Below, in pieces: positions 30,234 through 42,074 of a DNA stretch of 64,000 nt. The notes beneath the pieces are model-generated. The model saw nothing but the letters and a program-made list of their open reading frames with translations. It had not been told where the DNA came from and did not search any database. How positions within the stretch are numbered: position 1 is the stretch's first letter; the number at the start of each line of letters is the position of its first letter. Source of the DNA: Desulfurispora thermophila DSM 16022 (GTDB taxonomy: Bacteria > Bacillota > Desulfotomaculia > Desulfotomaculales > Desulfurisporaceae); contig NZ_AQWN01000008.1 of assembly GCF_000376385.1 (NCBI RefSeq), positions 62,001 to 126,000 of the forward strand, read 5' to 3'. The position numbers and the translations under genes are program-made.

Positions 30234-31841
30234 CTAAACGTCTTCTTTTAGCCATTTCTTAATCAGGGGAATGGTTTCCCGTTTATTGCCCTGTCGGTCC
30301 TGGTACTGGTCGGCATAGCGCAGGTAAATATTATCTTGCTCGATTATGAACTGGGTGATATTTTTTTCCAGTCCAGAATGAGCTAAAAAATTGCGCTTAT
30401 TTTTTGCGTTTAGGTATGAAGTGCCTTGTTCTAAAATGGACACGGAATACCATTTGCCCGTTTCCAGCTGGTCTTTTTTGCTTTCAATTTTACTTTTTAT
30501 TTTACCAATTTCGTTGGTTAGTAAGGTGCGGTTCAGAGACAACATGAATTTATTGTATACCTGTTCGAAATCCTGTTCAACTGATAATAGAGGGATCTTT
30601 ATCTCTTGGGCTTTGGTGATGCCCTGTGCTTGCAACACTTCTACTATGCCCTGATAAAAGCCCAGGGAGAGTATGGCTTTGGTGTAACTCGTCCGGCTAA
30701 GTTTGGGTGATTTCTGGTAGTTATCTTGTAGCATTTGACGGGTGTCGTCAATCAGGTCCTTCAGACAGGTTGTGATTTGTTCCAGAGAGTGACCTTCTAG
30801 ATGATATAAAATTAATGGTATGTTGTTTTTCAGGGCCGAGAAAAAATACACAAATTGCTCCAGCTGACAGGCTAGTCGTTCCCTTTTTTCCAGGCAAGAC
30901 TGGTTATCGGCAGTGTGATCGTATATATCGTTTAATAGTTTCCGACAAAAAGGGGGCTGACTATCTCGGGAAGTGATGGGGGAAAAGAAAAATGTCTTAT
31001 ATTCAACCTTTTGCTCGTAAATATTGTAGAAGGGAACTTCGACGTTGGCCAGGATGGGATCGGTATAAAGCAAATGCACTTCGGGAGCATCAGCCTTGTT
31101 TTGCCAGTAACGTAACTGGCTCCAGGTCCCAAAAATTCGTCCCGCTTCCAGCAAGGCGGGCACATAAATGTTCAGACCACTGGAAATGTCCAGGTACAAC
31201 CGGCGAAAACCTTGCTGCAAGTAACGAACCAGAATATCCAGAAATATTTCCAGCACCACATCATCAAAAGAGGTCTGAAAAGACACTGTATTTTTTTTCA
31301 TATATGTGCCCAGAGAGTGCAATATTAAGTAATCGTCCAGATCAGCGTAATAGGGCATAATGTTAAAAAACCGGGCCGGGTTTTTCAGGTAAGAGTGGGG
31401 TTGTTCGATTGCTTGAATAATCGCATTTTTAAATACAGGGTTTTTGTCAAATTTGGCCAAATGATCTTTATCCTTTAGTGATTCATTTAATGGAAGACTG
31501 ACCGGGTAAAGTAAAATTACAGCAGAGGTCTCTTTTTTTTGCTCAACCAGGTATTTTTTAAAAGCCAGGGAAGAGAGTTCACTTTCTTTTTTATAGTCTT
31601 TAATTTTAAAGGTGACGTTTTTAATATATTTATCCAGGCGCCCAATCTGGTATATAACATTTGTAAATTGCACATTAACCAGCCTCCAGATGGTGTAAGG
31701 TATTTTCCCGGTCGCTTTCACATAATTCCCGGGCCCTTTAGTGAGCACCGTTTTACCACCGACAACTGTGTTAGCGTTTTTTTGGAGAATTCGGGCCCTG
31801 ATGTCAAATTCCTCCTGTGTACCACAAAATAGGAAAAACAA
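30234..31841 (-). CDS. csx1: orphan Csx1-like CARF-HEPN protein (predicted CRISPR-linked ribonuclease)
   Basis: Up to 535 residues, markedly AT-richer than the neighbours. The middle carries a CARF-type motif, RRLYLDISSGLNIYVPALLE near residues 213-232 (D-x-[TS]-[HS]-G-x-N pattern of Csx1/MJ1666 proteins), preceded by a hydrophobic strand VILLYPVSLPLNES. The C-terminus has a HEPN ribonuclease motif RNFLAHSG (R-x4-H, near 483-488) in a helical context. Csx1 proteins bind cyclic oligoadenylate through CARF and cut RNA through HEPN. No cas gene or CRISPR array is in the window. The start is uncertain: the TTG at 31841 lies in the upstream terminator, an AGGAGG at 31810-31816 suggests initiation near 31802 (non-standard ATC), and GTG 31748 is the first standard alternative. 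Confidence 0.65.
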   Translation of the reverse strand: MFFLFCGTQEEFDIRARILQKNANTVVGGKTVLTKGPGNYVKATGKIPYTIWRLVNVQFTNVIYQIGRLDKYIKNVTFKIKDYKKESELSSLAFKKYLVEQKKETSAVILLYPVSLPLNESLKDKDHLAKFDKNPVFKNAIIQAIEQPHSYLKNPARFFNIMPYYADLDDYLILHSLGTYMKKNTVSFQTSFDDVVLEIFLDILVRYLQQGFRRLYLDISSGLNIYVPALLEAGRIFGTWSQLRYWQNKADAPEVHLLYTDPILANVEVPFYNIYEQKVEYKTFFFSPITSRDSQPPFCRKLLNDIYDHTADNQSCLEKRERLACQLEQFVYFFSALKNNIPLILYHLEGHSLEQITTCLKDLIDDTRQMLQDNYQKSPKLSRTSYTKAILSLGFYQGIVEVLQAQGITKAQEIKIPLLSVEQDFEQVYNKFMLSLNRTLLTNEIGKIKSKIESKKDQLETGKWYSVSILEQGTSYLNAKNKRNFLAHSGLEKNITQFIIEQDNIYLRYADQYQDRQGNKRETIPLIKKWLKEDV

Positions 31842-31863
31842 AAACAGCAGCCTGTCCGGCTGC
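31831..31863 (-). terminator. terminator of the selenoprotein gene
   Basis: On the minus strand GCAGCC (31863-31858) pairs with GGCTGC (31852-31847), loop GGACA, followed by TGTTTTTGTTTTTCC. It ends the selenoprotein transcript just before the Csx1-like gene. Confidence 0.8.
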
Positions 31864-31875
31864 CGAAATATACAG

Positions 31876-32130
31876 TTACTTCCGGGAGAGGAGTTTGGCC
31901 AGTTCCGCCTCCACTTCGCCCTCCTCCGGAAAGCGGCCCAGCGCCTTTTTGGAAAAGAGCAGCTGGTCTCCCGCCTTTACCTCGAAGACGCCGCCCCAGG
32001 AAGAGACGAGCCGCGGCTTTGCCACTTTTTCTCCGTATTGCTCTACAATTTTCTCAGCCAGCCTGGCTGCTTTGCTCCGGTACCCTCAGGTCGAGCAAAA
32101 TTCAATGGTAATGGGCAGTTTTTCCACCAT
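31876..32130 (-). CDS. SelW/Rdx-family selenoprotein with in-frame UGA
   Basis: Reading the minus strand from ATG 32130 gives MVEKLPITIEFCST, then TGA (32088-32086), then GYRSKAARLAEKIVEQYGEK, then VAKPRLVSSWGGVFEVKAGD, QLLFSKKALGRFPEEGEVEA, ELAKLLSRK and TAA at 31878-31876: 84 residues, the length of the SelW/Rdx thioredoxin-like family. The TGA sits exactly at the U of the CxxU motif (CSTU) after the first beta strand, where relatives have CxxC or CxxU, and the frame is conserved on both sides. A short hairpin CAGC-CAG-GCTG lies about 20 bases after the UGA and could be part of a bacterial SECIS. Ribosome site GAAAGGAGACCC. Its own terminator follows. Sec readthrough is inferred; a plain nonsense mutation is the alternative. 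Confidence 0.8.
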
Positions 32131-32147: not shown

Positions 32148-32651
32148 TTATTGGATGATCTGCTGCATTTTCTGGATGAACAATTGCACCTCCCGCGTGA
32201 GTCCCGCGCTCACAGCGGGCAGTTTTTCCAGAAGAGCACTGATTTTTTCCTCCGACAGGTTAAATCCGTAGACGTTGCGGAAAACATGGCGAAAGGCACG
32301 GAATTCGTCCAGTTTCCGGGCGGTGTGTTTGCTGATTACAGGGGGGCGTATGCCCGGTAGATCCAGCGTCATCTGCAGAATCAGCTCCCGGTGCCAGTGT
32401 TCGCCGGCGGGAATTTTTTCATCCAGCTCCCGGGCAATGATTTTAAAAATATTCTCTACCGCTACGTAAAAGTCGTGCAGCACGCTGCCGGCCGCCCGCA
32501 GGGTAAAAGTATCGCCTTTAATAAACTGGCGTAGTTTGTTCCCGGGGGCATTGATCAGTTGACGGCTGGCCAGCTCTGCCAGCAGATATTCAATTTGGCG
32601 CATTTCTTCCGCCAGGCGGGCGGCGACAAAGGTGAACTGTTTGGGCGTCAC
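32148..32651 (-). CDS. hepT: HepT-like HEPN toxin of a MntA/HepT-type pair
   Basis: 167 residues, all-helical: RLAEEMRQIEYLLAELASRQ, LRAAGSVLHDFYVAVENIFK, IIARELDEKIPAGEHWHREL, and FRAFRHVFRNVYGFNL near residue 130. Relatives carry R-x4-H-x-Y in the last segment; here it reads R-HVFR-N-V-Y, so the catalytic His is Asn while the Tyr that is AMPylated in HepT is kept. It overlaps the nucleotidyltransferase gene by 4 bases (GTGA), the standard coupling. A long upstream open extension to 33290 runs through mntA in another frame and is not real. Confidence 0.8.
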   Translation of the reverse strand: MTPKQFTFVAARLAEEMRQIEYLLAELASRQLINAPGNKLRQFIKGDTFTLRAAGSVLHDFYVAVENIFKIIARELDEKIPAGEHWHRELILQMTLDLPGIRPPVISKHTARKLDEFRAFRHVFRNVYGFNLSEEKISALLEKLPAVSAGLTREVQLFIQKMQQIIQ

Positions 32652-33010
32652 AGGATCACTCCTTCGCGCAGCACTTTGTCCCGCAGCTGGGGCAGGGCAT
32701 CGGCAGCATCCACCAGGCTCACCGGCCAGGGCAGGGTGATGGGTTCCAATTCTACCAGCAGTTGCCAGTAGTTGGCGCCGGCCGGCAGACCGGTCACCAG
32801 CAGGTCGATATCGGAATGGGGGGTAAAGTGTTGTCCCCAGGCCAGTGACCCGTACAGATAAACCGTGGTGCCCGGATAGCGGCTTTTGATGTGCGCGGCC
32901 GCCCGGCGAGCTTTGTGCAGCGCATCCCGGCGCCGCTCCTGTTCCTGGCGCTGTTCCCGGGCGGCCCGCTCTTGCCAGTAACGGCGCATGGCTTGCTCTT
33001 GGTCGGACAT
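32648..33010 (-). CDS. mntA: MntA-like minimal nucleotidyltransferase antitoxin
   Basis: About 120 residues. Nucleotidyltransferase motif YLYGSLAWGQHFTPHSDIDL near residues 60-80 (GS...DxD) and a third acidic strand further on (PVSLVDAAD). The N-terminal 40 residues are a charged helix (QEQAMRRYWQERAAREQRQE). In known pairs MntA AMPylates HepT to neutralise it. ATG 33010 preceded by GGGGAGAGGAAG. Upstream TTAAAAT at 33037-33043 may be its -10 box. Confidence 0.85.
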   Translation of the reverse strand: MSDQEQAMRRYWQERAAREQRQEQERRRDALHKARRAAAHIKSRYPGTTVYLYGSLAWGQHFTPHSDIDLLVTGLPAGANYWQLLVELEPITLPWPVSLVDAADALPQLRDKVLREGVIL

Positions 33011-33277
33011 GGAAGGCTTCCTCTCCCCTATCACCTATTATTTTAACACAGCTGCCGGCCGTCTGGAGAATATTCTGCACCGGGTCACGGAAAATTAATC
33101 CGCCGGTGACCAGCAGGGTTTTTTCGCCCGGAAAAATCCAGCCGGTGGGCAGCAGCTGGCGTCCGGTTCCCTGGCGGGGCAGGTTTACCGTATGCATGGG
33201 ACGGTTGTTTTCCCCTGTTTGATTTGTTATGATATTTTGTGAACCTTTTGCATCGGCTGGGTGAAGGGGGTGGCGCA
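33011..33277. other. intergenic region between mntA and the DUF488 genes
   Basis: About 270 bases with divergent promoters implied. A minus-strand frame from 33197 (HTVNLPRQGTGRQLL...) is open but runs into mntA without a stop and shows no family resemblance; no gene is called. Confidence 0.4.
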
Positions 33278-33721
33278 ATGAACCAGTCACCGAAGGGCGT
33301 GCTCTATACTACCAGCCTGGCGCGTTTAAGCAAACTGTCTGTACCCCGGGTGTGGGTGATTACCCGCTACGGTAATGACATTAAAAACACCCGGCGGGTG
33401 ACCGAACTGGCCCCCAGCCCGCAGCTGTACCAGATGTACATGGAACATTGGCGGGGCAGGGACCCCGAAACCTGGTGGGAAAAATATAAAGAGATTTTTC
33501 TTAGAGAACTGGCCATGCCGGAAAAAAGAAAGGCGCTGCGCGAACTGTGGAATCTTTTACAGGAGGGCCAGGATGTGGCCCTGGCTTGTTACTGCAGTGA
33601 CGGAACTTATTGTCATCGCCGCCTGGTGGGAGAATTTCTCGGCCAGTATGGAGTGCAGGTAGTTGAGTTGGCGGCGGAGCCGTGTTTGGTGCAGGGGCGC
33701 CTGTTCGAGGAGGGACTTTAG
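33278..33721 (+). CDS. DUF488 family protein, copy 1
   Basis: About 147 residues. LYTTSLARLSKLSVPRVWVI and a C-terminal metal/thiol-like motif LACYCSDGTYCHRRLVGEFL, the ending of DUF488/YeaO-like proteins. ATG 33278 follows GAAGGGGGTGGCGCA. Function unknown; the family is often found in pairs in defence- or conflict-associated islands. Its last base is shared with the GTG of copy 2. Confidence 0.8.
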   Translation: MNQSPKGVLYTTSLARLSKLSVPRVWVITRYGNDIKNTRRVTELAPSPQLYQMYMEHWRGRDPETWWEKYKEIFLRELAMPEKRKALRELWNLLQEGQDVALACYCSDGTYCHRRLVGEFLGQYGVQVVELAAEPCLVQGRLFEEGL

Positions 33722-34167
33722 TGGGAACGGTTTTGTATACCATCGGATTTGCCAAAAAGAGCCTGCGCCATTTTATAGAACTGCTGCGCAGCGTGGGAGT
33801 GGAAAGTGTGCTGGATGTGCGGCTGAACAATACCTCCCAGCTGGCCGGATTTGCCAAAAAAGATGACCTGGAGTACATTCTTTCCCTGGTGAACATTTCT
33901 TATCAGCATTTGCCAGAACTTGCTCCTACCGAGGAACTGCTGACCAAATTCAAGAAAAAAGAGATTACCTGGCCGGAGTACGAGGAGATCTACCGGCAAA
34001 TTTTGCAGGAAAGGCAGGCAATCCGATTGTGGGGTGACCGGGTAAGCAGGGAGATCCGGCATTGCCTTTTGTGCAGTGAGCACGATTTTCAGCACTGTCA
34101 CCGGAGACTGATAGCCGAACACTGGCAGGCGGCGGATCCGGAGCTGGAAGTGGTGCACCTGGTTTAG
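33721..34167 (+). CDS. DUF488 family protein, copy 2
   Basis: 148 residues from GTG 33721 (ribosome site GAGGAGGGAC). VLYTIGFAKKSLRHFIELLR, SVLDVRLNNTSQLAGFAKKD, DLEYIL, and the end HCLLCSEHDFQHCHRRLIAE are the classical DUF488 pattern (IGxS/A...DVRxxxxS...CxExxxxxCHR). Coupled to copy 1, likely a heteromeric partner. No established activity. Confidence 0.88.
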   Translation: MGTVLYTIGFAKKSLRHFIELLRSVGVESVLDVRLNNTSQLAGFAKKDDLEYILSLVNISYQHLPELAPTEELLTKFKKKEITWPEYEEIYRQILQERQAIRLWGDRVSREIRHCLLCSEHDFQHCHRRLIAEHWQAADPELEVVHLV

Positions 34168-40889: not shown

Positions 40890-42074
40890 ATGGCTGAATT
40901 GAAAACGCCACTTCTGGATCAGCTGACGACTGGCCCGTGGCCAAGCTTTGTGGCTGACATGAAGAGGCTGGTAGACAGAAAGCCCACCGTGGCTGACGTG
41001 CTCGCTCAGCTGGAGCTGTCCTATGAAGAGAAAAAGGGACACTGGAAACACGGCGGTATCGTGGGCGTAATGGGTTATGGCGGTGGTGTTATCGGTCGTT
41101 ACTCCGATATGCCGGAGAAATTCCCTAACGTGGCCGAGTTCCACACCATGCGCATTAACCAGCCCAGCGGCTGGTTCTACACCACCAAAGCGCTGCGCGA
41201 CCTGATGAAAATCTGGGACAAGTATGGCAGCGGTCTGACCAACATGCACGGTTCCACCGGCGACATCATTCTGCTGGGTACCGTTACTGACAATCTGCAG
41301 CCCGCTTTTGACGAGTTCAGCGATTTGGGATGGGATCTGGGTGGTTCCGGTTCCGACCTGCGCACTCCCAGCTGCTGCGTGGGCCCCGCCCGTTGCGAAT
41401 GCGCCTGTATTGATACCCTGGATCTTTGCTATGACCTGACCCAGGAATTCCAGGATGAACTGCACCGCCCGATGTGGCCGTACAAGTTCAAGATCAAGAT
41501 TTCCGGTTGCGCCAACGACTGCGTGGCCTCCATCGCCCGGGCCGACTTTGCCATTATCGGTACCTGGCGCGACGATTTGAAGATCGACCAGGAAGCTGTA
41601 CGCGAGTACGTGAACAGCGGCTTTGACATCCAGGGCGTTGTTATTGACAAGTGCCCCACCAAGTGCCTGACCTGGACCGGCAGCGAGCTGGTGCTGGACG
41701 GTTCCAACTGCGTGCGCTGCATGCACTGCATCAACAAGATGCCCAAGGCCCTGCGTCCTGGCGATGATAAAGGTGCCACCATCCTGGTGGGCGGTAAGGC
41801 TACCATTCTGCAATCCGCCTTCCTGGGCTGGGTGATCGTGCCCTTCATGAAGCTGGAGAAGCCCTACGATGAGCTCAAAGACCTGCTGCGCAACATTTGG
41901 GAATGGTGGGACGAGCACGGCAAGGTGCGCGAGCGCATTGGCGAGCTGATCTACCGCAAGGGCATGCGCGTGTTCTTGAAAGACCTGGGCATGGATCCCC
42001 TGCCGCAAATGGTCTTCAGGCCGCGGGCCAACCCGTACTTCTTCTGGTGGCCGGAAGAAGTCAACCAGGGTTAA
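40890..42074 (+). CDS. dsrA: dissimilatory sulfite reductase alpha subunit
   Basis: About 394 residues. Siroheme-[4Fe-4S] region [18 protein letters not shown] and the second pair [20 protein letters not shown]; the ferredoxin domain [15 protein letters not shown]; Gram-positive DsrA start ([20 protein letters not shown]). DsrAB reduces sulfite to a DsrC-bound sulfur. ATG 40890 follows GGAGGTGTCTTG. Confidence 0.98.

What the first reader, a model, noticed from the sequence alone, without database searches (positions are those of the whole stretch)
31876..32130. Hidden selenoprotein: SelW/Rdx family with CSTU motif
An in-frame TGA lies exactly at the second redox position of a CxxU motif, with family-like sequence continuing for 69 codons to a normal stop, its own ribosome site and its own terminator. 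Ordinary gene finding breaks this gene. Sulfate-reducing Peptococcaceae commonly have selenocysteine machinery.
Basis: partly seen in the sequence, partly recalled or inferred. Interest (0 to 1): 0.75.

Follow-up and report, generated by a model that had tools for sequence, protein, structure and literature searches.

The report
Bacterial SelW-like selenoprotein, UGA-coded
This is a small redox protein gene in which a UGA 'stop' codon is read as selenocysteine; it is real and easily missed by gene finders, but it belongs to a selenoprotein family already known from many bacteria, including close relatives.

Summary
On the minus strand, 32130..31876 encodes an 84-residue protein with one in-frame TGA at codon 15 (MVEKLPITIEFCSTUGYRSK...), ending at TAA. 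The read-through protein matches Pfam Rdx (PF10262) and TIGR02174 (SelT/SelW/SelH) well above their curated cut-offs. The genome holds tRNA-Sec (UCA anticodon), selA, selB and selD, and its own SelD and formate dehydrogenase also carry TGA at their expected active-site positions. Of 75 relatives aligned, 71 have TGA at this exact codon, all with the Cys three residues earlier; two have Cys there. A hairpin 22 nt after the UGA meets all four published bacterial SECIS rules and covaries across 60 non-redundant relatives (93% paired against 80% under within-column synonymous permutation, 0 of 2000 reaching it). Expression and Sec insertion are inferred, not shown. The family, its CxxU motif and its presence in Desulfotomaculum-type bacteria have been published since 2006, so this is a new member of a known kind and of low novelty. 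The one unusual feature is its position 17 nt downstream of an MNT/HEPN-type gene pair, probably incidental because relatives have other neighbours.

The parts
31876..32130 (-). selW-like (Rdx family) selenoprotein gene, 84 aa with Sec at residue 15, TAA stop
   Evidence: translation; PF10262 E 1.5e-18, TIGR02174 E 2.4e-15; 71 aligned sequences with TGA at the same codon
32086..32088 (-). in-frame TGA (Sec codon) of the CSTU motif
32055..32069 (-). bSECIS-type hairpin: 6 pairs (5 with the larger loop), apical loop GGC (or AGGCU) at 32063-32061, 22 nt after the UGA, -8.4 kcal/mol
   Evidence: rules from PMC13188914
32138..32142 (-). Shine-Dalgarno-like AGGAG, 7 nt before the ATG
   Evidence: sequence
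31845..31865 (-). intrinsic-terminator-like stem-loop with T-run
   Evidence: consensus match only

Best explanation
A SelW-like (Rdx family, PF10262) selenoprotein. SelA, SelD and tRNA-Sec make Sec-tRNA. SelB carries it to the ribosome and recognises the hairpin just after the UGA, so that UGA inserts Sec instead of stopping. The product is expected to have a thioredoxin-like fold with a CxxU redox pair (Cys12/Sec15) that cycles between selenol-thiol and selenenylsulfide, as a small thiol-disulfide oxidoreductase. Shown computationally: gene, family, machinery, Sec/Cys pairing and conserved RNA hairpin. Inferred: expression, actual Sec insertion, and redox function; the physiological substrate is unknown.
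For: Family matches over curated cut-offs and homologous solved structures such as 2fa8 with Cys aligned at the Sec position. tRNA-Sec, 72 bits against a cut-off of 47, anticodon TCA. selA E 3.8e-185, selB E 1.4e-109, selD E 3.1e-117. The genome's own SelD (AAGUAAKVG) and FdhA (CARLUHAPTV) have TGA at the expected site. TGA lies at the same codon in 71 of 75 aligned sequences (this one included) from many phyla, with Cys12 kept in all 71. The Cys form in G453 goes with no selB over cut-off. The hairpin is in fixed register: 89% of cells paired against 24-49% when slid; 93% of the first five pairs against 80.4 +/- 1.2% under within-column synonymous permutation (0 of 2000); G at the first loop base in 59 of 60, followed by U or G in 55.
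Against: The 56-nt stretch after the UGA, folded alone, is not more stable than shuffles (z 0.78), and no Rfam model matches there. For this sequence alone, 7% of synonymous recodings would keep all six pairs, so the RNA evidence rests on the family rather than on this one copy. There are no expression or protein data.
Confidence: 0.97

Rival explanations
1. A Cys-form rdx gene disrupted by a TGC/TGT-to-TGA mutation or sequencing error (a pseudogene).
For: Cys forms exist (L041, L082).
Against: TGA is at the same codon in 70 relatives, the full Sec machinery is present, and the hairpin is conserved. The 69 codons after the TGA remain open and family-like.
Confidence: 0.01
2. UGA is read as an amino acid other than Sec (near-cognate read-through by Trp or Cys tRNA).
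For: Low-level read-through of UGA is possible in any bacterium (general knowledge).
Against: Position in CxxU, pairing with Cys in the Cys-form homologues and solved-structure relatives, a bSECIS hairpin, and other Sec genes in the same genome.
Confidence: 0.015

Closest known systems
Bacterial SelW-like selenoproteins (Rdx family PF10262, TIGR02174, CxxU)
   Same: Same family, motif, Sec position and bSECIS placement. Listed as a prokaryotic selenoprotein family with CxxU in PMC13188914; 10 SelW-like selenoproteins in the 2006 survey, including Desulfotomaculum reducens and Alkaliphilus (PMC1794560).
   Different: About 50% identity to the nearest relatives in the order; neighbouring genes differ.
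Cys-form Rdx proteins such as Agrobacterium Atu0228 (PDB 2fa8)
   Same: Homologous over residues 5-81 (E 1e-7).
   Different: CxxC in place of CxxU.

Membership tests
SelW-like / Rdx selenoprotein (PF10262) | Rdx domain over the curated cut-off | tested here: met
   67.2 bits against 22.6; TIGR02174 56.6 against 34.2. The Campylobacter-type equivalog NF041051 scores 78.3, below its cut-off of 88.
SelW-like / Rdx selenoprotein (PF10262) | CxxU with UGA at the second redox position, paired with Cys in Cys-form homologues | tested here: met
   71 TGA and 2 Cys among 75 aligned sequences
Bacterial selenoprotein | selA, selB, selC, selD in the genome | tested here: met
Bacterial selenoprotein | bSECIS: 3-9 nt apical loop, 4-16 bp stem, G in the first two loop positions, 16-37 nt spacing, MFE at or below -7.5 | tested here: met
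   3-nt loop GGC, 6 bp, 22 nt, -8.4 kcal/mol; rules from PMC13188914
SelW-like / Rdx selenoprotein (PF10262) | thioredoxin-like fold | not tested
   Inferred from homology to solved Rdx proteins; no model was made
SelW-like / Rdx selenoprotein (PF10262) | Sec in the protein and redox activity | not testable with these tools
   needs 75Se labelling, mass spectrometry or assay

The most novel reading that the evidence does not exclude
The selenoprotein works as a redox partner of the MNT/HEPN-type pair encoded 17 nt upstream, next to a Csx1 gene, linking selenium redox state to a toxin-antitoxin or defence module.
Probability: 0.03. Interest if true: 0.55.

Novelty: new member of a known kind. 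Interest (0 to 1): 0.15.

Why it matters
It adds one correctly decoded selenoprotein to a sulfate/sulfite-reducer genome that a plain gene finder would leave blank. The family alignment also gives a clean example of a SECIS hairpin conserved in a protein-coding sequence. It changes no concept.

Tried and rejected
Single-sequence folding of the 56 nt from the UGA region was uninformative, and Rfam found no relevant match there. A scan of the window for other TGA-interrupted frames with a CxxU/UxxC-like motif gave 17 frames including this one; only the SelW gene combines known family homology with a good hairpin, and the rest look like chance frames, judged from their sequences rather than by a family search. 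Conserved operon context was looked for: relatives have varied neighbours, for example a cysteine-synthase-like gene upstream in L026 and L030 (named from sequence only), so no conserved partner was found. No structure prediction was run, since the family match was already decisive.

Full report
Observation. On the minus strand, window 32130..31876 reads MVEKLPITIEFCSTUGYRSKAARLAEKIVEQYGEKVAKPRLVSSWGGVFEVKAGDQLLFSKKALGRFPEEGEVEAELAKLLSRK* with TGA as U. The TGA is codon 15 (32088-32086) and 69 sense codons follow. AGGAG precedes the ATG by 7 nt and a terminator-like stem follows the stop. The ordinary code gives no ORF of 50 aa or more in this frame.

Family. The read-through product matches Pfam Rdx at 67.2 bits (cut-off 22.6), residues 7-76, spanning the TGA, and TIGR02174 SelT/SelW/SelH at 56.6 bits (cut-off 34.2). 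Solved homologues such as 2fa8 carry Cys at the Sec position.

Machinery. The genome (2.82 Mb, 99.6% complete) has one tRNA-Sec at 72 bits with anticodon TCA; two further matches over the Rfam cut-off are tRNA-Cys and tRNA-Ser by ARAGORN. It has selA, selB and selD. SelD itself has Sec at its usual site (SLTSAAGUAAKVG) and FdhA has Sec at its usual site (DHCARLUHAPTV); that these are the usual sites rests on general knowledge of the two families. The genome therefore appears to use Sec in at least three genes.

Sec/Cys pairing. In the order, 18 of 113 genomes (this one included) hold a match, all with an in-frame TGA. Across these, a phylum sample and named genomes from several phyla, 75 sequences gave alignments: 71 (this one included) have TGA at exactly this codon with the Cys at position 12 kept, 2 have Cys (L041, L082), 1 weak match has Arg and 1 is truncated. 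The genome of L082 (G453) has no selB match over cut-off, while the other 19 phylum genomes tested all do. This is one case and so only suggestive; the Arg-bearing genome, G256, does have selB. selB is over cut-off in 109 of 113 genomes of the order, so within the order it cannot discriminate.

SECIS. PMC13188914 gives the bSECIS rules: apical loop of 3-9 nt, stem of 4-16 bp, a G in the first two loop positions, 16-37 nt from UGA to loop, MFE at or below -7.5. Here the loop is GGC, the stem 6 bp, the spacing 22 nt and the MFE -8.4. On 60 non-redundant sequences, in fixed register from the UGA, 89% of cells pair (24-49% when slid by 1-3). The outermost five pairs reach 93%, against 80.4 +/- 1.2% when codons are permuted among sequences with the same residue in the same column (0 of 2000 reach it; shared ancestry of the sequences is not removed by this control). 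Four of the six pairs show at least four cells changed on both sides. The first loop base is G in 59 of 60. The family argument is strong; the single-sequence argument is weak (z 0.78; 7% of synonymous recodings keep all six pairs).

Mechanism. Inferred from these families: SelB bound to the hairpin delivers Sec-tRNA to the UGA, and the CxxU pair in a thioredoxin-like fold then acts as a thiol-disulfide/selenenylsulfide redox couple. The substrate and physiological role of bacterial SelW-like proteins are not established here.

Surroundings. An MNT-like nucleotidyltransferase and a HepT-like HEPN gene lie directly upstream on the same strand, the HEPN gene ending 17 nt before the selW start, and a Csx1 gene lies downstream. 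The relatives examined have other neighbours, so no functional tie is claimed.

Known or new. SelW-like proteins are a listed prokaryotic selenoprotein family with CxxU (PMC13188914). The 2006 survey found 10, including one in Desulfotomaculum reducens, and noted that few Cys forms occur in Sec-using organisms (PMC1794560), which matches. SelW genes being missed by annotation was also reported (PMC4607533). This is a correct but ordinary find.

Noticed in passing
window 32148-33010, minus strand: MNT-like nucleotidyltransferase (start ATG 33010, Polbeta/NTP_transf_2; weak MntA_antitoxin match below its cut-off) and HepT-like HEPN gene overlapping by GTGA, ending 17 nt before the selW start; probably co-transcribed with it.
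   Followed up: partly
window 30234-31841, minus strand: CRISPR-associated CARF-HEPN protein Csx1 (TIGR01897, 122.5 bits, cut-off 110) just downstream of selW; the listed TTG start lies within 5 bases of the selW terminator-like stem, so the true start is uncertain.
   Followed up: partly
window 40914-42068, plus strand: dsrA (dissimilatory sulfite reductase alpha) at 591.8 bits, followed by a second, weaker dsrA-family match, likely dsrB.
   Followed up: partly
window 33239-34167, plus strand: Two consecutive DUF488 genes.
   Followed up: no
L026, L030: Two relatives have a cysteine-synthase-like ORF directly upstream of selW, a possible functional hint (named from sequence only).
   Followed up: no
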